Assembly: GCF_015207455.1 (NCBI RefSeq)
Contig: NZ_JADEWV010000001.1
Location: forward strand, 1-64,000
Direction of reading: 5' to 3'
Length of the DNA: 64,000 nt
Source: Microcoleus sp. LEGE 07076
GTDB taxonomy: Bacteria; Cyanobacteriota; Cyanobacteriia; Cyanobacteriales; Microcoleaceae
The translations under genes were made by a program, and so were the position numbers. Positions 23,984 through 43,927 of the stretch are shown piece by piece (within the stretch, counting starts at the first letter, position 1; each line of letters opens with the position of its first letter). The notes under the pieces were generated by a model. The model was not told the origin of the DNA. It saw nothing but the letters and a program-made list of their open reading frames with translations, and did no database searches.

Positions 23984-24754
23984 TTAATACCCTATAAAAA
24001 ACAGACCATAGCCGTCGGCGAACTGAATAGCATATTGTCTTTCTCCATAGAGGTGGTTATTAATGTCAAAAGATATTTTTAGCGGGCGATCGCAGACAAT
24101 TGCAATCTCTTCAAAAGCGAAAATCCAGCCACATTCCTGAATCAATGATCTAATGACTTGCCATTTTGTGCGATCGTACAAATTCAAAACATCAACACAA
24201 TAATCAATCGATCCAGACCATAACTCTACTTTTCCACTTATATAATTCCCCGCACAATTTATTGGAATTATATTTGAGTTTTTACGATATTTATCTAAGT
24301 AAAAGTTGAGGTCATATTCAGGTATTGTTTTGAGTTTCTTCTTCATTTTCAATCTATATAAAAGTTGTATTTTTGATAAAAGTTTATAGTGCCATTCCAT
24401 TAATGACCAGATATCCCTATCATTTTTTCTGTTTAATTTGTCCATTTCTCCACGTACTCTAAACATTGCTTGGAAGTATGGATCGAAGTATATATCTGTC
24501 AATGCTTGTAAGCGATGACCAAACTGAATTGATAGTTGAATTTCGATAATTCGCGACAAAGCAGTAAAAGGGCTAGTACAAAAAATAATTATAGGTTTTT
24601 TTCTCCCCACCATGCTGTAAGCAAGTTTGATAGCTTCTGTAGCTTTCTGATAGTCAATAGATTTTGTAGAAAGAACGATCCGTTCCCACTTTTTCATATA
24701 AATTGGAATGAGAGCTTTTTGTTCTGGATCTAGTTCGGAAATTATGTCAGTCAT
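23984..24754 (-). CDS. DUF6745-like protein, shortened at the C-terminus
   Basis: 256 residues. It opens LDPEQKALIPIYMKKWERIVLSTKSIDYQKATEAIKLAYSMVG and later has ECGWIFAFEEIAIVCDRPLKISFD and AIQFADGYGLFFIGY, the pattern I associate with the cyanobacterial DUF6745 family. Relatives continue past the ADGY segment; here a stop follows almost at once, so the C-terminus is probably truncated. Codons are AT-rich compared with the flanking housekeeping genes. Function unknown; the family is often found near repeats and leucine-rich-repeat proteins. Confidence 0.6.
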   Translation of the reverse strand: MTDIISELDPEQKALIPIYMKKWERIVLSTKSIDYQKATEAIKLAYSMVGRKKPIIIFCTSPFTALSRIIEIQLSIQFGHRLQALTDIYFDPYFQAMFRVRGEMDKLNRKNDRDIWSLMEWHYKLLSKIQLLYRLKMKKKLKTIPEYDLNFYLDKYRKNSNIIPINCAGNYISGKVELWSGSIDYCVDVLNLYDRTKWQVIRSLIQECGWIFAFEEIAIVCDRPLKISFDINNHLYGERQYAIQFADGYGLFFIGY

Positions 24755-24997
24755 AAACTGAGCGATAGTTTAGTTAATTATTGAATAAATTTATCATAAC
24801 TAAAATAATAGTTGTATGGCACTAATATTCTCTACTATTTAAAGCAAAAAGATTTGATAGACGTATTTTACTATCGATCGTGCAACAATTTGCAAAAATT
24901 AATATAAAAATACATATATCAGTGTCAACAGACAGCTAACTCATGTAGAATATAGCCAATAGGTGCATTAAATGTCAAGTGTAACAGGGTTGAAAAT

Positions 24998-25888
24998 ATG
25001 GCAACCAGAATTCAGAACCTGCAAGTAACTAAAGTAGTTGATGGCGACAGCATCAAAATTTCTCTCCACGGCAAAACCGAGTCTCTGCGCCTGATTTGCG
25101 TCGATACTGAAGAAAGTCATTCGGGAGGAACCAAACCTGTAACTGTGGCGGGGAAAGCAGCTTCGGAAATGGCTAAACAATATTTTGCGACAGCAGATGG
25201 TGGACTTGCTAAAGTTGACATTGAATTTGATACAGATGACCCCATAGAAATTGCTGTAGAAAAACACCGCGATAACTACGGTCGCCTGCTGTGTTACGTA
25301 CATAAAGATGGAGAAAATTACAATCTTAAACTGATTGTAGAAGGCTGGAGTCCCTACTTTTTGAAATACGGGCGTTCCCGATTGTATCACCGACAAATGA
25401 CTGAGGCAGAATCGGTGGCAAAAGCTTATAACCTGATGATTTGGAATCCGATTACCAATGCCAAAATTCCCTGTCGCAACTATGCTAATTTACTGCCTTG
25501 GTGGTCGATGCGCGGCTCTATTGTTGAAGATTTTCGCTTGGCGGAAGCAACAGCAGGAGCGCTTTCTGTGAGGTTGGATTACCCGAAAATATTAGCGGCT
25601 GCTGAAACGGCTAAACCTATTACTATTTTTTGCGATTTGCAGGCGGGAATTAATAAATGGATAGGCAGCCATGCTGTGATTTATGCGGGTTCATCGTATC
25701 ATAAATTAGATTTGTGGATACCTAATGCTGAAACTGATGAAATGGCTCCCTTGAAGCGACTAATCGAGAAGCGTTATGCGGGTAGGGGACGGGGATATGT
25801 GTATGTCAGCGGCAAGGTAGAACAATACAAAGGAAAGCCTCAAATAGTTTTAAACAACCTCAAACAATTTTCTGATTTCCCCCCATAA
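24998..25888 (+). CDS. Staphylococcal nuclease-like (TNase) protein with an extra C-terminal domain
   Basis: 296 residues. The N-terminal half (about 1-150) is an SNase OB-fold: VTKVVDGDSIKI, LRLICVDTEES with the first catalytic Arg/Asp/Glu set, KHRDNYGRLLCYVHKDGENYN with the second Arg, and LIVEGWSPYFLKYGRS. Ca-dependent DNA/RNA hydrolysis is expected. Residues about 160-296 form a second domain (KPITIFCDLQAGINKWIGSHAVIYAG ... GYVYVSGKVEQYKGKPQIVLNN) that looks like another OB-fold, possibly nucleic-acid binding. No signal peptide, so it is likely intracellular. The ATG at 24998 is the only reasonable start. Confidence 0.82.
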   Translation: MATRIQNLQVTKVVDGDSIKISLHGKTESLRLICVDTEESHSGGTKPVTVAGKAASEMAKQYFATADGGLAKVDIEFDTDDPIEIAVEKHRDNYGRLLCYVHKDGENYNLKLIVEGWSPYFLKYGRSRLYHRQMTEAESVAKAYNLMIWNPITNAKIPCRNYANLLPWWSMRGSIVEDFRLAEATAGALSVRLDYPKILAAAETAKPITIFCDLQAGINKWIGSHAVIYAGSSYHKLDLWIPNAETDEMAPLKRLIEKRYAGRGRGYVYVSGKVEQYKGKPQIVLNNLKQFSDFPP

Positions 25889-37000: not shown

Positions 37001-38617
37001 AGTGACAATCTCTTCGCGGATCGAATCTATCGGCGGATTCGTAACTTGAGCAAAAAGTTGCTGGAAATATTCGTAAAGCAACTTTTGCCTGTTCGATAAA
37101 ACAGCAAGCGGCGTATCCGCACCCATCGCACCGACAGCTTCCACCCCATTGTTTGCCATCGGCGCTAACAGCATCCGCAGTTCTTCAAAGGTGTAGCCAA
37201 AAGCCATTTGCCGCTGCAATAAAGTTTCGGGTTGAGATTCTGCCACTACTTCCGCATCTGGTAGTTTGGCAATTTCTACCATGTGTTTATCAATCCACTC
37301 GCGGTACGGATGTTCCGAAGCGATTTGATGTTTAATTTCCTCGTCAGAAATGATGCGGCCTTCTGCTGTATTAACTAAGAACATCCGGCCCGGTTGCAAG
37401 CGACCTTTTGAGAGAATTTGTTCTGGGGCGATCGGCAAAACTCCCGCTTCCGATGCCATAATTACTAAGTCATCTTTGGTGATGCAGTAACGGGAAGGAC
37501 GCAAACCGTTGCGATCGAGTACAGCGCCGATCGATGTTCCGTCGGTAAATGCGATCGAAGCCGGCCCATCCCAAGGTTCCATCAAGCAAGAATGGTATTC
37601 GTAGAAAGCCTTTTTCTCGTCACTCATCGACTCGTGGGCTGTCCAAGGTTCGGGAATCATCATCATCACGGCGTGGGGTAAAGAACGCCCGGCCAAATAC
37701 AGCAATTCCAAAGCATTGTCAAAAATTGTCGAGTCGCTACCTTGGATGTTGATTAAATTCGGGATTTTCTTTAAATCGTCTCCGAAAAGTTCCGACTCGA
37801 ACATCGATTGCCGCGCGTGCATCCAGTTGATGTTGCCGCGCATCGTGTTGATTTCGCCGTTGTGGGCGATGTAGCGGTAAGGGTGCGATCGTTCCCAACT
37901 CGGAAAAGTATTGGTGCTGAAGCGCGAGTGAACCAGGGCTAAGGCGCTTTCCATGTCGGGGTCGTGCAGTTCGGGATAGTAATCTCCCACTTGCACCGGC
38001 ATCAACATTCCTTTGTAGACGATCGTCCGGCAGGAGAGTGTGGAATTATACCAGTAGGGGTCTACTTCCGTCCTGCGGATGGCGTTGTGGGCGCGTTTGC
38101 GGATCACGTAAAGTTTCCGCTCGAAAGCCGCCTCGTCCATAGCTGCGGGGCGGCTGACGAACACTTGCTGCATGAAGGGTTCGCTGGCTTTGGCGGTATC
38201 GCCCAGGGATGAATTATCCGTGGGGACATCGCGCCAACCTAGCAGGGGACAGCCTTCTTCGGCTGCGATTTCGGCAAAAATGCGTTTGCCGTTTTCCCGT
38301 TCCGTCTGATTTCGCGATGAGTAAATTGCACCAACGCCGTACTCGCCGACTTCTGGAAGTTCGATGTTTTCGGCTGCGGCTGCTTTCTTGAGAAACTTGT
38401 GGGGCACTTGCATCAAAATGCCCGCGCCATCTCCGGTATTGGGCTCGCAGCCACACGCACCTCGGTGGTCGAGATTCAGTAGAATTGTCAGTGCCTGTTC
38501 GACTATTTCGTGAGATTTGTTACCCTTGACGTGTACAATGAATCCGACTCCGCAAGCGTCGTGCTCGAACTGGGGATCGTACAGGCCTTGTTTTTGTGGC
38601 AATCCGTTGCTATTCAT
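34031..38617 (-). CDS. glsF: Ferredoxin-dependent glutamate synthase
   Basis: 1,528 residues, typical for the ferredoxin type. It makes two glutamates from glutamine and 2-oxoglutarate with reduced ferredoxin. A short propeptide precedes the Ntn nucleophile Cys ([11 protein letters not shown], about residue 22). The FMN synthase region has [13 protein letters not shown]; the 3Fe-4S ligands are C-x5-C-x4-C in [19 protein letters not shown]; the C-terminal GXGXG beta-helix follows. No gltD (NADPH subunit) is adjacent, which fits the ferredoxin type. The leader contains the GCTCTAGAGC palindrome 34 nt before the ATG, shared with glpX. Downstream lies a decayed copy of its own end (31592-31656). 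Confidence 0.97.
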
Positions 38618-38651
38618 TTGGATAAGTCTCTCAAAGTGATCAAAAAATTGC

Positions 38652-38661
38652 GCTCTAGAGC
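38652..38661 (-). promoter_or_regulatory. GCTCTAGAGC palindrome in the glsF leader
   Basis: A perfect 10-bp palindrome 34 nt upstream of the glsF ATG, inside a longer GCGCTCT...AGAGCGC hairpin (38650-38668). The same 10-mer occurs 35 nt before glpX (51490-51499). Candidate operator or leader element; not a known motif to me. Confidence 0.35.
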
Positions 38662-38669
38662 AGAGCGCG

Positions 38670-38945
38670 GGATGGCGATCGATCTAGTATCATTTATTAT
38701 ATGTGGATCTACTACATTGGGTAGGTGCGCGAAAAAATTAAAGCTAGTGCGATCGATCGTGCAAAAATAGTTACAATCGATGAGTTAAGTGTTAGGAATT
38801 CTGGGCTAAATATTTATGCTGAAAAAATATCTAATTATTAGCGCGTCTAGATTGGAATGATTTAACCGCAGAGAACGCAGAGAACGCAGAGTCAGAGAAG
38901 AGAGAGAAATAATTAGGATTTAAACTGACATCTTGCATCATTTTT
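38670..38945. other. Divergent intergenic region upstream of glsF
   Basis: It holds the glsF promoter region (AT-rich around 38688-38704, revcomp), HIP1-like gatcgatc clusters and, at 38864-38914, a direct copy of the accgcagag/cgcagag interspersed repeat directly before the truncated excisionase gene. No NtcA-type GTA-N8-TAC site was found by eye. Confidence 0.45.
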
Positions 38946-39388
38946 ATGAACGGGAAAACAATACTCCTAGATCCGGTTTTACCGACAGAAGCAGAAACAA
39001 TTGCTATCAAGTTGTTGGATAAAATGTTAAGCATCAAGATAGAAAATGGTGATTCTGAGACATTAAAAGTAAAACTTGTGGAAGTGGGCGGGGAAGAAAT
39101 CGCACTTCCTGAATCTCTCTATCAATTGTTGTGTCAAGCTGCACATTTGATGGCGGCTGATAAAGCAGTATCTTTAGTGCCGATTGAGCAAGATATGACT
39201 GTTGAAGAAACGATGACGGGGAAATTACCTATGGAAAAGTAGGAAACCAGCGGCGGATTAGTTTGGCAAGTGCGATCGCATACAAACAGCAGCGTAGTGT
39301 TAAGCGCCGTGAAATTCTCAAGGAATTAGCTGAGTTTAGCCAAGAAGAGGAATTGCATGAGAGCAGAGTATACAGCTCTTATAACTGA
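38946..39388 (+). pseudogene. Excisionase-type HTH antitoxin gene with the HTH deleted and frame broken
   Basis: The first frame (ATG at 38946) gives LPTEAETIAIKLLDKMLS, then VGGEEIALPESLYQLL and SLVPIEQDMTVEETMTGKLP, and stops at 39242. The next frame resumes VGNQRRISLASAIAYKQQRSVKRREILKELAEFSQEEEL and ends at 39388. Family members have the winged-helix SRPYLVKLLEEG segment between these parts; here it is missing, with a frame change at about 39238. It is a decayed antitoxin of an HTH/PIN pair. Confidence 0.7.
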
Positions 39389-39473
39389 TATATCGATATT
39401 TTCGTCTAACAGATATTTAACACTCATTAATAAACTCGATCCAGTTGTTGAGATTTCTGATTTTGCTCTTTAA
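39357..39473 (+). pseudogene. Remnant of a PIN-domain toxin gene start
   Basis: The open stretch MRAEYTALITD from the ATG at 39357 resembles the first residues of cyanobacterial PIN toxins that follow this HTH gene family (compare YTALxDACVLYP). Similarity is lost after about 11 residues. It overlaps the 3' part of the DUF433 gene on the other strand, marking where the original locus was cut. Confidence 0.4.
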
Positions 39474-39768
39474 GCTGACGCATTTTCAAGACAAAAGGTG
39501 ATGGATTGCGATCGTATTCAGCTTCAGCTTTGAGGCAATATTCTAACCAATCTCCTACATATTTACCTACAGTTTTTGGATTTTCCAGATAGTACAAAAT
39601 CGTAGCATAAACTTGAGCCATCGTCACTGTCCGAAATTTTTGAGCTATGGCTTCTGGAGTTTGGCCGCGGTGGATGTATTCGTAGAGAATGTGTTCGATA
39701 CCGACGCGGGTTCCTTTGATGCGGATATCTTCTGGTGTTGAAAATTTAAAGTAATCTTCTAATTGCAT
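39427..39768 (-). CDS. DUF433 protein without an adjacent DUF5615 partner
   Basis: 113 residues: MQLEDYFKFSTPEDIRIKGTRVGIEHILYEYIHRGQTPEAIAQKFRTVTMAQVYATILYYLENPKTVGKYVGDWLEY. Same subtype as the paired gene at 18906-19256 and distinct from the nearby array at 41499-43225. No PIN-like gene follows it on the minus strand; the downstream side is the PIN/HTH remnant. Probably an orphan antitoxin left after loss of its partner, or a free regulator. Confidence 0.78.
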   Translation of the reverse strand: MQLEDYFKFSTPEDIRIKGTRVGIEHILYEYIHRGQTPEAIAQKFRTVTMAQVYATILYYLENPKTVGKYVGDWLEYCLKAEAEYDRNPSPFVLKMRQLKEQNQKSQQLDRVY

Positions 39769-39902
39769 AATTGTTGATTATTTATATTTTTAATTGACAT
39801 TATATCACATTTTTCGCTGTTCGGTGGAGATGGGCGATGGTGTCCCGCCCCGCAAGCTAAGGGTTTGGTTCAAATAGCCAGTGAAGATGGGTGTATATAA
39901 AT

Positions 39903-40817
39903 CTACCTTAAGGTAAGCTCCCTAGCTCTAAGTTTAGTTGCTATGATTCTGTTTTGGTCTAAGATTTGCACCTGTTCTTTTTTGTACATAGGGAGATTGT
40001 CTATGTTACTAAGTTCTCCCAATTCCCAATGACCATCCTTAATTTTTAACCCAGCAGTCCTCTTGATTATTCCGGTTTTTTCTAAGGTTTGAATCTCACT
40101 ACAAACAGCTTGCGGTTTATCAGAGATTTTAAGTCCTCTCAATATTTGTTGATAATTTAAACTCCCCCATACTTGAAACAAATTTAAAACTAATTTTTGG
40201 GTATCAATATAAAATACATCACGATCTAAAGGTTTCAAGTCTTCAAAATAAGTCACGTTACCTGTATGTGTTAGACTTAACTTTAAATCAATTCTTTTGA
40301 CTTCATGATAATTGGATGTTAATTCGCAAATCAGCTTCATGCAATACTTTTTTAATGCTTCGACAGACGAAAGTGATAACACAGCTTTAGTTTGCTTTTT
40401 ATCTAGCTCATAAAATTCCCAACTCTTAACCCATTGATTTTGTATTAATTGATAAACAGTACAATAAAAACATAAGTTAACTACTGATGGTTCGTACACG
40501 CCATTCTTTTTTTTATCCTCATTACAAAAATTATAATAATAATTTTGGTGTAATCTCTCTAGATACTTAATTACACCGTGAATCTTTTCTTGTTTATAAA
40601 GAGTCCTTAAAAAACCAAGATCGTCAAAAAGTAAGTCACTAAATTCTAAAAAGTTAGATTTATATACAATAGAGTGTTTTAAAAATGGAACGCACCAATC
40701 AATAGGTTTTTCAATCCAAAGTGGTTCCTTAACTACATTTAATGTTGTCTCGTCACGAGTAGCTTGTATTTCTAAATTACCTAAATTTAAGAAATGAGTG
40801 TTTAAGGAAATTTTCAT
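39903..40817 (-). CDS. Unknown protein with a C-terminal winged-helix-like region, operon with a CoiA-like nuclease
   Basis: 304 residues. The long N-terminal part (about 1-200) is lysine/tyrosine-rich with no recognised domain: VYQLIQNQWVKSWEFYELDKK, LKKYCMKLICELTSN. Around residues 210-260 LNLFQVWGSLNYQQILRGLKISDKPQAVCSEIQTLEKTGIIKR has the helix-turn-helix plus wing layout of an MarR/ArsR-like winged helix. The DNA is AT-rich compared with glsF and the DUF433 array. The ATG follows the stop of the CoiA-like gene with no gap, so they form a coupled pair. It could be a regulator or DNA-specificity partner of the nuclease (inference). Confidence 0.7.
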   Translation of the reverse strand: MKISLNTHFLNLGNLEIQATRDETTLNVVKEPLWIEKPIDWCVPFLKHSIVYKSNFLEFSDLLFDDLGFLRTLYKQEKIHGVIKYLERLHQNYYYNFCNEDKKKNGVYEPSVVNLCFYCTVYQLIQNQWVKSWEFYELDKKQTKAVLSLSSVEALKKYCMKLICELTSNYHEVKRIDLKLSLTHTGNVTYFEDLKPLDRDVFYIDTQKLVLNLFQVWGSLNYQQILRGLKISDKPQAVCSEIQTLEKTGIIKRTAGLKIKDGHWELGELSNIDNLPMYKKEQVQILDQNRIIATKLRARELTLR

Positions 40818-41456
40818 TTATGTAATCTCCGAGTCTTGTATGGTTCTTTCAAAATTTAAAATGTAGGGATATTTGCCAAAATAGTTATAATACCAACTAA
40901 TATTATCATTTGTATGGGCACTTTTTCCGAACAACCAGTCAAAAGTAACACCTAAACTGCGGTAATCTTCAGACCGTGACTCTAACGTTTCTGGAGTAAT
41001 TGCAGATAATTGACACTCAAAAACAAAAAGTTCTCCGCCAGGAAAATTAAAAGCTACATCGCAGATTCTATATTTGCCGTTTTCCAGTTTAAGTAACTTT
41101 TCAAACTCCAAAATTTCTTTGGATAAAAAACCTTTCGATAATTCTTCTACCTTTTCAGCTATCCATCGTTTGCCTTCTCGGTGTTCTTCTGATTCCCCTG
41201 GTGAGTATTTTTCGCCTTTTTTAAAATACTCATCAGAAAATTCAATATCTAGAGGAAATTCTCCCGTATAAGTTGAACGAAAGTGCGATCTTACATTTGT
41301 CGTATAGCCATACTGGGTTTTTCTGTCATACCCTGAAACATGAATACAAGGGGTATCTGTAAACTTGTCTAATATTAAACTTTTGTGTTCTTCCTTGTTG
41401 TAATCTTGAGCATCTAATATTTTTTTAGTTTCTTGTATTTTGGCTGTTAAACTCAT
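40818..41456 (-). CDS. CoiA-like nuclease (PD-(D/E)XK)
   Basis: 212 residues. EEHREGKRWIAEKVEELSKG, then KYRICDVAFNFPGGELFVFECQLSAITPETLESRSEDYRSLGVTFDWLFG follow the CoiA pattern: H-x3-K, R-x-x-D-V, E-x-Q-x-S-x-x-S-x-E-x-L-x-x-R-x-x-x-Y-x-x-x-G. CoiA is a competence-linked nuclease in Gram-positives; stand-alone relatives are scattered in bacteria with uncertain function. An N-terminal segment of about 80 residues (HVSGYDRKTQYGYTTN) precedes the nuclease core. Catalytic residues appear intact. First gene of a two-gene, zero-gap operon. Confidence 0.78.
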   Translation of the reverse strand: MSLTAKIQETKKILDAQDYNKEEHKSLILDKFTDTPCIHVSGYDRKTQYGYTTNVRSHFRSTYTGEFPLDIEFSDEYFKKGEKYSPGESEEHREGKRWIAEKVEELSKGFLSKEILEFEKLLKLENGKYRICDVAFNFPGGELFVFECQLSAITPETLESRSEDYRSLGVTFDWLFGKSAHTNDNISWYYNYFGKYPYILNFERTIQDSEIT

Positions 41457-41498
41457 AACTACTTGGAAGAGTTGACTACATATATGAGATTATATCAC

Positions 41499-41714
41499 AA
41501 GTCAAAGACTCCTGGGCTATGTGGAGGCGATGCTTGTATCGGCAATACTCGCATACCAGTTTGGTCGCTGGTGTGAGATCGACGTTTAGGTATTTCCGAT
41601 GCTATAATTCTAGAATCATTTCCCGATCGCACCGCCACTGACTTGATAAATGCTTGGGCTGATGCTGATGCTTACCCAGACGAAATTGAACAAACAATTA
41701 GAAAAAATGATTGA
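41499..41714 (+). pseudogene. Decayed DUF433 gene, 5' truncated and with an internal stop
   Basis: In one frame it reads KTPGLCGGDACIGNTRIPVWSLV, then TGA at 41574-41576 where the paralogue at 42112 has TGC, then DRRLGISDAIILESFPDRTA and ends EQTIRKND. The first roughly 38 codons are missing. It is the left member of the tandem DUF433 array. Confidence 0.9.
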
Positions 41715-41725
41715 GATTGTAAATA

Positions 41726-42052
41726 ATGCTACTGAAAGAATTAGAAAAACAACTCCTTGCCTTAACTCCCGCTGAAAAAATTCAGGCAATACAGCTATTA
41801 GTCCAAAGTTTAAGCAATACTTGGCAAGGAATCGAAAAAACTCCGGGCGTGTGTGGCGGCGATGCTAGAATTGCTAAGACTCGCATACCTGTTTGGTCGA
41901 TGGTAAATTATCGCCTTCTGGGTGCAAATGATGTGCGAATTTTGCAAGACTTTCCTCATTTGAGTGCAGCGGATTTGGCGAATGCTTGGGCTTATGCTGA
42001 GGCACACCCAGAGGAAATTGAAGCTGCGATCGCTAGAAATGAGGCAGCCTAA
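41726..42052 (+). CDS. DUF433 protein, first intact member of the array
   Basis: 108 residues. Helical N-terminus (LLKELEKQLLALTPAEKIQAIQLLVQSLS), then KTPGVCGGDARIAKTRIPVWSMVNYRLLGANDVRILQDFPHLSAADLANAWAYAEAHPEEIE, the DUF433 core with a DUF2281-like front. It starts 11 bp after the decayed copy. No DUF5615 gene follows before the next DUF433 gene, so the partner may have been lost. Members of this type bind DNA and serve as antitoxins (family inference). Confidence 0.82.
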   Translation: MLLKELEKQLLALTPAEKIQAIQLLVQSLSNTWQGIEKTPGVCGGDARIAKTRIPVWSMVNYRLLGANDVRILQDFPHLSAADLANAWAYAEAHPEEIEAAIARNEAA

Positions 42053-42111
42053 AACATGGCGCAAATTTGCTATAATCTAACTAATATATTCAGATCCGAT
42101 CGATCGCACTT

Positions 42112-42459
42112 ATGACTATACAAGAATTAGAAACTCAAGTCTCAACCTTAAATCCCGTTGATAAAGCTAAACTCATCAGCATCCTAACTCAAACTTTAAC
42201 CAACGGTTCTCTAGGCATTAAAAAAACTCCCGGTGTGTGCGGAGGCGATGCTTGTATCGGCAATACTCGCATACCAGTTTGGTCACTGGTGTGCGATCGA
42301 CGTTTAGGTGCTTCCGATGCTATCATCCTAGAATCATTTCCCGATCTAACCGCCGCTGACTTGGTAAATGCTTGGGCTTATGCTGATGCTTATCCAGAGG
42401 AAATTGAACAGGCAATTAAAGAAAATGATGAAGTTATGGAAGAAAGCGAGGTTTATTAA
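42112..42459 (+). CDS. DUF433 protein, paired antitoxin-like
   Basis: 115 residues: TIQELETQVSTLNPVDKAKLISIL..., then KTPGVCGGDACIGNTRIPVWSLVCDRRLGASDAIILESFPDLTAADLVNAWAYADAYPEEIEQAIKEND. It lies 3 bp upstream of a DUF5615 gene. It is nearly identical in its core to the decayed copy at 41499 and closely similar to the gene at 42899. Probable antitoxin and transcriptional autoregulator of the pair. Confidence 0.85.
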   Translation: MTIQELETQVSTLNPVDKAKLISILTQTLTNGSLGIKKTPGVCGGDACIGNTRIPVWSLVCDRRLGASDAIILESFPDLTAADLVNAWAYADAYPEEIEQAIKENDEVMEESEVY

Positions 42460-42462
42460 AAG

Positions 42463-42804
42463 TTGGCACGTTTTTACACAGATGAAAACTTCCCGCTAGC
42501 AGTCGTAGAATTATTGCGGGCTTTGGGTCACGATGTATTAACAGCGAGGGAAGCAGGGAATGCAAATCTTCAAATTCCTGACGAAGATGTGTTAGCTTTT
42601 TCTGCGAGCAATTACCGAACAGTTTTAACGCGAAATCGCCGTCATTTCATGCGATTACACATTCAAAACTCTGACCATAGTGGTATTGTTGTTTGCACGG
42701 AAGACCCGAATTTTGAAAGGCTGGCAACGCGAATTAATGATGCTATTTCTACCCTGGATACTTTGAACGGTAAATTGATTCGAGTTAACCGTCCTTCGAT
42801 GTGA
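42463..42804 (+). CDS. DUF5615 PIN-like protein (TTG start)
   Basis: 113 residues. FYTDENFPLAVVELLRALGHDVLTAREAGNANLQIPDEDVLAFSASNYRTVLTRNRRHFMRLH shows the DEN motif and the T-x-N-x-x-x-F motif of DUF5615, a PIN-like putative RNase. It starts with TTG where its paralogue at 43229 has ATG; the aligned start makes this the likely initiation codon, possibly lowering toxin output. Gap to the antitoxin gene is 3 bp. Confidence 0.85.
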   Translation: MARFYTDENFPLAVVELLRALGHDVLTAREAGNANLQIPDEDVLAFSASNYRTVLTRNRRHFMRLHIQNSDHSGIVVCTEDPNFERLATRINDAISTLDTLNGKLIRVNRPSM

Positions 42805-42898
42805 AAAAAAGCCGTAGCTTGCGGGGCTTGGGCTATCGCCAAATCTAGATTTAAGCTAAAATATTAAACATATATTCCCCAATAAATAGGAATAAACT

Positions 42899-43225
42899 AT
42901 GACACTCACCGAATTAAAAATCGATCTAGCCTCCTTAAATTCAGCCGATAAAGCAGCGGCTATAGAAATTTTACTTCAAACCTTAAGCACTGGTGCTATA
43001 GGCATTAAAAAGACTCCCGGCGTGTGTGGCGGCGATGCCTGTGTTGGCAATACTCGCATACAAGTTTGGGTACTTGTGGGTTATCGCCGTCTCGGATGCA
43101 GCGATGCTGAACTTTTTAAGTGCTATCCCCATTTGACTGCGGCTGATTTAGTCAATGCTTGGGCTTATGCTGATGCTTACCCAGACGAAATTGAACTAGC
43201 AATTAAAGAAAATGAGGAAGCCTAA
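42899..43225 (+). CDS. DUF433 protein, second paired antitoxin-like gene
   Basis: 108 residues: TLTELKIDLASLNSADKAAAIEILLQTLS, then KTPGVCGGDACVGNTRIQVWVLVGYRRLGCSDAELFKCYPHLTAADLVNAWAYADAYPDEIELAIKENEEA. Third intact copy in the array, followed 3 bp later by its DUF5615 partner. Sequence is more divergent than between the copies at 41499 and 42112. Confidence 0.85.
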   Translation: MTLTELKIDLASLNSADKAAAIEILLQTLSTGAIGIKKTPGVCGGDACVGNTRIQVWVLVGYRRLGCSDAELFKCYPHLTAADLVNAWAYADAYPDEIELAIKENEEA

Positions 43226-43228
43226 AAC

Positions 43229-43570
43229 ATGGCACGAATTTATGCAGACGAACAGTATCCGTTGCCAGTAGTTGAGTTTCTGCGACCTTTAGGTCACGAT
43301 GTTTTAACAGTTCAAGAAGCCGGAAACGCAGGATTAGGAATTCCTGATGAGGATGTATTGGCTTTTGCAGCGAGTAATGAGCGAGCAGTTTTGACTCTCA
43401 ATCGAGGGGATTTTATTCGACTGCATCGATCGCAACCCGACCATGCTGGTATTATTATTTGTACTCAAGATAACAACTGGGAAAGACAGGCGACCCGAAT
43501 TAATGATGCTATTTCTACCCTGGATACTTTGAGTGGTAAATTGATTAGAGTTAACCGTCCTTCGATCTAA
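43229..43570 (+). CDS. DUF5615 PIN-like protein (ATG start)
   Basis: 113 residues. IYADEQYPLPVVEFLRPLGHDVLTVQEAGNAGLGIPDEDVLAFAASNERAVLTLNRGDFIRLH is the DUF5615 core; the first motif is D-E-Q here rather than D-E-N. The C-terminus is nearly identical to the copy at 42463 (AISTLDTLxGKLIRVNRPS). It starts with ATG, unlike its paralogue. Likely toxin partner of 42899-43225. Confidence 0.85.
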   Translation: MARIYADEQYPLPVVEFLRPLGHDVLTVQEAGNAGLGIPDEDVLAFAASNERAVLTLNRGDFIRLHRSQPDHAGIIICTQDNNWERQATRINDAISTLDTLSGKLIRVNRPSI

Positions 43571-43927
43571 AAAAAGCCGTAGCTTGCGGGGCCAGGGCGC
43601 GCCCTGGTTAAATCCACAGCAATTGTGAGATTCTGTACGCGGCCTTGACTGCGTGACTAATCACAATTATGTTGAAATGCTTAAGTTCTGTGAAGAGTTG
43701 ATGTAGATTGGTAAGTTCGATCGAATACCGGGTGACAACAGCTAGGGTAATTTTGCTATGGTTATTAAGGCGGGTCGATCGGGCTGACAAGATTTATCGG
43801 TAAAAGTGTAGAGTTCGCTAACTCGTCCGCGCGGGTGGGCTGCGATTTTTACAACAAATTAGCTGGCCTCAAAACCCAACGTCGTTTACCACAGGATTCC
43901 GCAAACAATCCTCAAGGAGTGAAAATC
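43571..43927. other. Intergenic region with a 16-bp palindrome after the TA array
   Basis: AAAAAGCCGTAGCTTGCGGGG follows the 43229 gene, as it follows the 42463 gene (42806-42828), so the duplicated unit extends past the stop. CCAGGGCGCGCCCTGG at 43592-43607 is a perfect palindrome and may end the array transcript. The cupin promoter should lie near the right end; no clear boxes. Confidence 0.5.

What the first reader, a model, noticed from the sequence alone, without database searches (positions are those of the whole stretch)
39903..41456. AT-rich two-gene operon: CoiA-like nuclease plus unknown winged-helix protein
Seen: two minus-strand genes with zero spacing (TAA directly followed by ATG), visibly more AT-rich than neighbours, between a decayed HTH/PIN locus and a DUF433/DUF5615 array. 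The first has the CoiA nuclease pattern (H-x3-K, R-x-x-D-V, E-x-Q-x-S). The second has a novel roughly 200-residue N-terminal part and a winged-helix-like C-terminal part. Inference: a transferred nuclease/specificity or nuclease/regulator pair, possibly anti-mobile-element. Best candidate here for an undescribed system.
Basis: partly seen in the sequence, partly recalled or inferred. Interest (0 to 1): 0.75.

Follow-up and report, generated by a model that had tools for sequence, protein, structure and literature searches.

The report
Mobile CoiA-like nuclease and winged-helix partner
Two touching genes in a Microcoleus-type cyanobacterium encode a DNA-cutting enzyme of the CoiA family and a fast-changing DNA-binding-type partner; the same pair recurs, and moves between species as exactly these two genes, in scattered cyanobacteria and on small Vibrio plasmids, so it is a real, apparently undescribed module whose job (probably attacking foreign DNA) is still unproven.

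Summary
Window 39903-41456(-) carries two abutting genes (TAAATG) with the lowest GC3 of the 26 ORFs of 200 aa or more. The first (212 aa) is a CoiA-type PD-(D/E)XK nuclease (PF06054, E=3e-7) with all active-site residues. The second (304 aa) matches no Pfam, NCBIfam, PADLOC or PHROGs family; AlphaFold gives a confident winged helix at 204-270, while the first ~200 residues stay unresolved.

Distant homologues of the partner sit directly behind, or overlap, CoiA genes in 12 of 19 CoiA-positive genomes of the order, and on Vibrio plasmids. Two genomes of different families share an 89%-identical 1272-bp stretch ending 5 bp before coiA and 22 bp after the partner: the pair is the transfer unit. 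The partner evolves about four times faster than the nuclease.

Function is inferred: most likely a two-subunit nuclease whose partner gives DNA targeting, used against foreign DNA. Known defence genes are not enriched nearby, and no known defence model matches. Toxin-antitoxin and DNA-processing roles remain possible. It is not a canonical competence CoiA: zinc-ribbon and CoiA_C domains are absent.

The parts
40818..41456 (-). coiA-like gene, 212 aa, PD-(D/E)XK (PD-EXQ) nuclease, first gene of the cassette
   Evidence: ORF; PF06054 E=3e-7; catalytic residues invariant in 10 homologues; AF2 core H-E-E-E-H-E; purifying selection
40929..41195 (-). nuclease core, residues 88-176 (E88, H92, K96, E119, R130, D133, E147, Q149)
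39903..40817 (-). partner gene, 304 aa, no known family
   Evidence: ORF; no Pfam/NCBIfam/PADLOC/PHROGs hit; distant homologues behind other CoiA genes
40008..40208 (-). winged-helix domain of the partner, residues 204-270
   Evidence: AF2 pLDDT 70-91 by blocks in 211-270; VIA Z 8-9.6
39909..39956 (-). conserved C-terminal helix of the partner (A293, R297, A298 invariant), residues 288-303
   Evidence: alignments; also present in the Vibrio homologue
41448..41492 (.). weak inverted repeat TAAACTCATA/TATGAGATTA around the coiA start, same in L038; possible operator or start-codon hairpin, unproven
41503..41711 (+). truncated DUF433 remnant that travels with the cassette in Microcoleus
   Evidence: 94% identical joined segment at a different chromosomal site in L003/L038; partial in L002

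Best explanation
A horizontally transferred two-gene nuclease cassette. Gene 1 is a CoiA-family PD-EXQ endonuclease subunit. Gene 2 is its dedicated partner: an unresolved ~200-residue N-terminal part, a winged helix and a short conserved basic C-terminal helix. The most likely mechanism is that the two proteins act together, the partner binding or recognising DNA and bringing or licensing the nuclease to cut it, as a small methylation-free barrier to incoming DNA. Shown: gene structure, nuclease fold and intact active site, winged helix (predicted), conserved adjacency, co-transfer as exactly two genes, faster evolution of the partner. Inferred: complex formation, DNA recognition by the partner, foreign DNA as the target.
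For: CoiA homologues are followed by, or overlap, a homologue of gene 2 in G000, G001, G290, G629, G126, G014, G016, G074, G127, G168, G194 and G066, that is 12 of the 19 genomes with CoiA at E<=1e-20, and on two Vibrio plasmids. A profile built without the Microcoleus trio finds the window partner at E=3e-7, and none of 1048 decoys was listed. The partner profile hit 4 of 386 phylum genomes, always next to CoiA. L026 and L073, from different families, share 89% identity over 1272 bp that begins 5 bp before coiA and ends 22 bp after the partner. Nuclease omega 0.10 vs partner 0.41 in that pair, Fisher p=0.001. Distance matrices of the two proteins correlate, r=0.94. CoiA models to the PD-(D/E)XK core and aligns to Can2, TT1808, SfsA and NucS/EndoMS. 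One CoiA-domain system is a proven phage defence in E. coli (PMC9519451).
Against: No enrichment of defence-model hits within 6 kb. No interface could be predicted: the pseudo-fusion model has pTM 0.37. The N-terminal part of the partner stays mostly below pLDDT 50, so 'recognition' has no structural support beyond the winged helix. A fast-evolving partner also fits a toxin-antitoxin pair or plain relaxed constraint. The r of 0.94 is partly set by the close relatives in the set.
Confidence: 0.4

Rival explanations
1. Toxin-antitoxin-like module: the CoiA nuclease is a DNA-damaging toxin, and the winged-helix partner neutralises it and represses the operon.
For: Tight or overlapping two-gene operon, sporadic horizontal spread, plasmid carriage, location beside DUF433/DUF5615 genes in the window, weak inverted repeat at the start of coiA, faster evolution of the partner.
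Against: Intact CoiA genes occur with a broken partner (L029, two stops before the winged helix; L028, no winged helix found) or with another neighbour (L030, L031, L034-L036). Toxin first is the less usual order.
Confidence: 0.2
2. DNA-processing pair for competence or recombination: nuclease and DNA-binding partner act on imported or recombining DNA, as CoiA does in streptococci.
For: CoiA domain; in S. [quoted passage not shown]
Against: Any CoiA-type gene is in only 8 of 30 Microcoleus genomes and the window genome has only this one; CoiA_N and CoiA_C are missing; locus unlike the mecA-coiA-pepF locus of E. faecalis and S. aureus.
Confidence: 0.13
3. Selfish or plasmid-derived cassette: a nuclease/DNA-binding pair that promotes its own transfer or plasmid maintenance and is decaying in chromosomes.
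For: Exact two-gene transfer unit without flanking homology; Vibrio plasmid copies; several copies decayed (L029, L033, L037, L078).
Against: No integrase or transposase in the unit; purifying selection on both genes.
Confidence: 0.15

Closest known systems
Canonical CoiA (PF25164-PF06054-PF25166), competence nuclease-like protein of Firmicutes
   Same: Nuclease domain with the PD-EXQ active site (PMC1189080)
   Different: Window protein has no zinc ribbon and no CoiA_C; encoded with a separate partner; not in the mecA-coiA-pepF locus
CoiA-domain phage-defence system of Vassallo et al. 2022 (PMC9519451)
   Same: A CoiA domain in an accessory system found by selection for phage resistance
   Different: Sequence of that system could not be compared here; no PADLOC model matches either window gene
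Two-gene nuclease plus DNA-binding partner modules in general (type II toxin-antitoxin, nuclease/specificity pairs)
   Same: Overlapping or abutting genes, sporadic transfer, fast-evolving partner
   Different: Neither a CoiA nuclease in this role nor the partner family is described in the libraries and papers searched
Can2/Card1 and other PD-(D/E)XK nucleases (7bdv, 1xmx, 1wdj, SfsA, NucS)
   Same: Core fold, Z up to 8.3
   Different: No CARF or other sensor domain in the CoiA-like protein itself

Membership tests
CoiA nuclease domain family (PF06054) | Match above the curated cut-off | tested here: met
   31.1 bits vs 20.3, E=3e-7
CoiA nuclease domain family (PF06054) | PD-EXQ active-site residues conserved | tested here: met
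   D133, E147, Q149 and R130 invariant in 10 homologues
Canonical competence CoiA | N-terminal zinc ribbon (CoiA_N, PF25164) | tested here: not met
   No hit, and the CxxC is lost in the window protein; a Cys pair is kept in several relatives such as L025-L027
Canonical competence CoiA | C-terminal domain CoiA_C (PF25166), in the same or a split protein | tested here: not met
   No hit in CoiA or partner; the Listeria CoiA_C does not rise above its shuffled copies with the partner profile; hhalign finds nothing
Canonical competence CoiA | Role in processing donor DNA during transformation | not testable with these tools
   Needs genetics
PD-(D/E)XK nuclease fold | alpha-beta-beta-beta-alpha-beta core | tested here: met
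   H90-107, E115-123, E129-137, E143-149, H155-167, E171-176; Z about 8 to nucleases
Winged-helix DNA-binding domain (partner) | Three helices plus beta wing | tested here: met
   H206-217, H222-229, H235-248, E251-255, E263-266; Z 8-9.6
Winged-helix DNA-binding domain (partner) | Binds DNA | not testable with these tools
   Needs a gel shift or similar
Known anti-phage defence systems (PADLOC 2.0.0) | Match to a defence model | tested here: not met
   No hit at E<=1 for the window genes; none at E<=0.1 for relatives except a chance-level Specificity_I hit, E=0.03
Restriction-modification | Cognate methyltransferase in the unit | tested here: not met
   The 1272-bp transfer unit holds only the two genes
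Type II toxin-antitoxin | Tight two-gene operon | tested here: met
   TAAATG, ATGA or overlapping junctions
Type II toxin-antitoxin | Partner indispensable when the nuclease is intact | tested here: inconclusive
   L028 and L029 keep an intact CoiA with a damaged partner, but the winged-helix part of L029 could still be made
Type II toxin-antitoxin | Nuclease toxic alone, neutralised by the partner | not testable with these tools
   Needs expression assay

The most novel reading that the evidence does not exclude
A new class of minimal two-subunit DNA interference: a conserved CoiA nuclease used with interchangeable, fast-evolving recognition partners (winged-helix type here, a different unmatched partner type in L030-L032), working without a methyltransferase and spreading as a bare two-gene cassette.
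Probability: 0.25. Interest if true: 0.75.

Novelty: new variant of a known kind. Interest (0 to 1): 0.5.

Why it matters
CoiA has long been called a competence protein of unclear biochemistry. A stripped-down CoiA that travels with one dedicated partner gives a two-protein system in which the role of the nuclease domain can be tested outside competence. If it restricts foreign DNA, it would be an undescribed compact defence type that the defence catalogue searched here misses (no PADLOC model), and whose partner gene overlaps coiA and is not listed as a gene in the Vibrio plasmid tables.

Tried and rejected
Chance adjacency or degraded ORF: rejected by homologous pairs elsewhere, the held-out profile test and purifying selection. 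'Split CoiA' (partner equals CoiA_C): not supported. Defence-island context: 138 neighbours vs 133 control ORFs, 201 vs 229 PADLOC families hit, no enrichment; crude, since family counts are not gene counts. Phage origin: no hit for the partner in phages or plasmids with the window protein, none in viral contigs for CoiA, no meaningful PHROGs match. Solved structures by sequence: none for either profile. Partner fold: alignment of 10 gives only the winged helix and tail; no N-terminal fold could be claimed. Complex: the in-frame TAA between the genes was read as a residue only as a modelling device; low pTM, no interface claimed. A Vibrio family search was not possible.

Full report
Observation. 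Two minus-strand genes lie at 40818-41456 and 39903-40817, TAA directly followed by ATG. They have the lowest third-position GC (0.27, 0.26) of 26 ORFs of 200 aa or more in the window; the median is 0.44. The window belongs to a genome whose closest named matches are Microcoleus sp. FACHB-DQ6 and an Oscillatoriales MAG.

Gene 1. PF06054 (CoiA_nuc) is matched above its cut-off. In ten homologues H58, E88, H92, K96, E119, R130, D133, E147 and Q149 are invariant, the PD-EXQ site described for CoiA in PMC1189080. AlphaFold gives the H-E-E-E-H-E core of PD-(D/E)XK enzymes, and VIA-align puts it next to VC1899, Can2, TT1808, SfsA, NucS/EndoMS and restriction enzymes at Z 5-8; Foldseek alone gives no E below 0.001. 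The zinc-ribbon and C-terminal domains of canonical CoiA are absent.

Gene 2. No hit in Pfam, NCBIfam, PADLOC or PHROGs. AlphaFold (10 sequences, pTM 0.38) resolves only a winged helix at about 204-270 and a C-terminal helix; the winged helix aligns to H1 histones, MarR and other winged-helix proteins at Z 8-9.6. The first ~200 residues remain unresolved.

Conservation of the pair. The partner protein itself finds only two close relatives (91%) in the order sample. The CoiA protein finds 17 of 342 genomes, and a profile 19 of 391 at E<=1e-20. Behind these CoiA genes lies a homologue of gene 2 in 12 of the 19. Homology is shown by a held-out profile: trained without the Microcoleus trio it finds the window partner at E=3e-7, the Vibrio one at 3e-4, and lists none of 1048 decoys. 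G629 and G066 were not in the training set of the first profile and score 4e-78 and 1e-30. In 386 phylum genomes the partner profile hits four genomes, all beside CoiA. Two Vibrio plasmids carry a 45%-identical CoiA (to L026) followed by an overlapping partner frame that is absent from the gene table.

Transfer. In G000 the cassette sits between gltB and a mannose-6-phosphate isomerase-type gene; in G001 and G290 it sits next to pntAB, 94-95% identical over 1.8 kb and joined to the same truncated DUF433 end. Other Microcoleus genomes have gltB and the isomerase-type gene with other content between them. L026 (G074) and L073 (G629), from different families, are 89% identical over 1272 bp, starting 5 bp before coiA and ending 22 bp after the partner stop, with no similarity outside. 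The two-gene pair is therefore the unit.

Evolution. Nuclease omega is 0.10 and partner omega 0.41 in L026/L073, Fisher p=0.001; the Microcoleus set shows the same direction. Distances correlate (r=0.94), the partner always being the more diverged. In the L025-L031, L073 and L054 type the partner frame is open 131-212 nt into coiA, more than synonymous shuffles usually give in several loci (p 0.014-0.29), and start codons after the coiA stop are rare, so the partner probably starts inside coiA. In the Microcoleus type the junction is TAAATG or ATGA.

Function. A CoiA-domain protein is among phage-defence systems proven in E. coli (PMC9519451), so a defence role is plausible. But neighbours within 6 kb are not enriched in defence-model hits relative to control regions, and no PADLOC model matches. 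Loci with an intact CoiA and a damaged partner (L029, L028) speak mildly against an obligate antitoxin. The restricted spread (8 of 30 Microcoleus genomes have any CoiA; the window genome has this one) speaks against a core competence role. I commit to a two-subunit nuclease with a DNA-binding partner aimed at foreign DNA, at 0.4.

Novelty. The nuclease family is known and the partner family appears undescribed in the libraries searched; paper searches showed no description of such a pair. I file it as a new variant of a known kind (two-gene nuclease module), not as a member of canonical CoiA.

Noticed in passing
L054 5389-6078 (NZ_CP016311.1) and L055 960-1646 (NZ_CP150861.1): Open frame overlapping coiA in +1, absent from the plasmid gene table, homologous to the partner's C-terminus; it carries the conserved AVKNRAR motif near its end.
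   Followed up: partly
L025, L026, L027, L029, L030, L031, L073, L054: Partner frame stays open 131-212 nt inside coiA with few start codons after the coiA stop, suggesting a real long gene overlap or a frameshift product.
   Followed up: partly
L030 6286-7146, L031 6171-6824, L032: A different, unmatched partner-like protein follows coiA in genus g56; coiA is conserved at DNA level while the partner is not.
   Followed up: partly
L035 5470-6688: CoiA-like nuclease overlapped by a second gene that itself matches CoiA_nuc weakly (E=3e-5): a possible active/degenerate nuclease pair.
   Followed up: no
L029 8474-10214 and L037 2378-4118: ATPase-like plus small PIN-like gene near the cassette, possibly the source of the two PADLOC PDC-M07A/B hits; same locus in two related genomes.
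   Followed up: no
window 38617-43835: gltB to mannose-6-phosphate isomerase-type gene interval is hypervariable in Microcoleus and filled with DUF433/DUF5615 genes and remnants.
   Followed up: partly
window 23984-25888: Another AT-rich patch (GC 0.32 in 24-25 kb) with a DUF6745 gene and a staphylococcal-nuclease homologue.
   Followed up: no
L057 4001-6340 (Synechocystis plasmid CP101711.1): CoiA gene followed by a small ORF and a gene annotated as Abi family protein.
   Followed up: no
L058 6001-6150 (NZ_CP135178.1): Partner C-terminal fragment about 90 bp after an IS4-family transposase on a Vibrio cyclitrophicus plasmid; no CoiA in the gene table there.
   Followed up: partly
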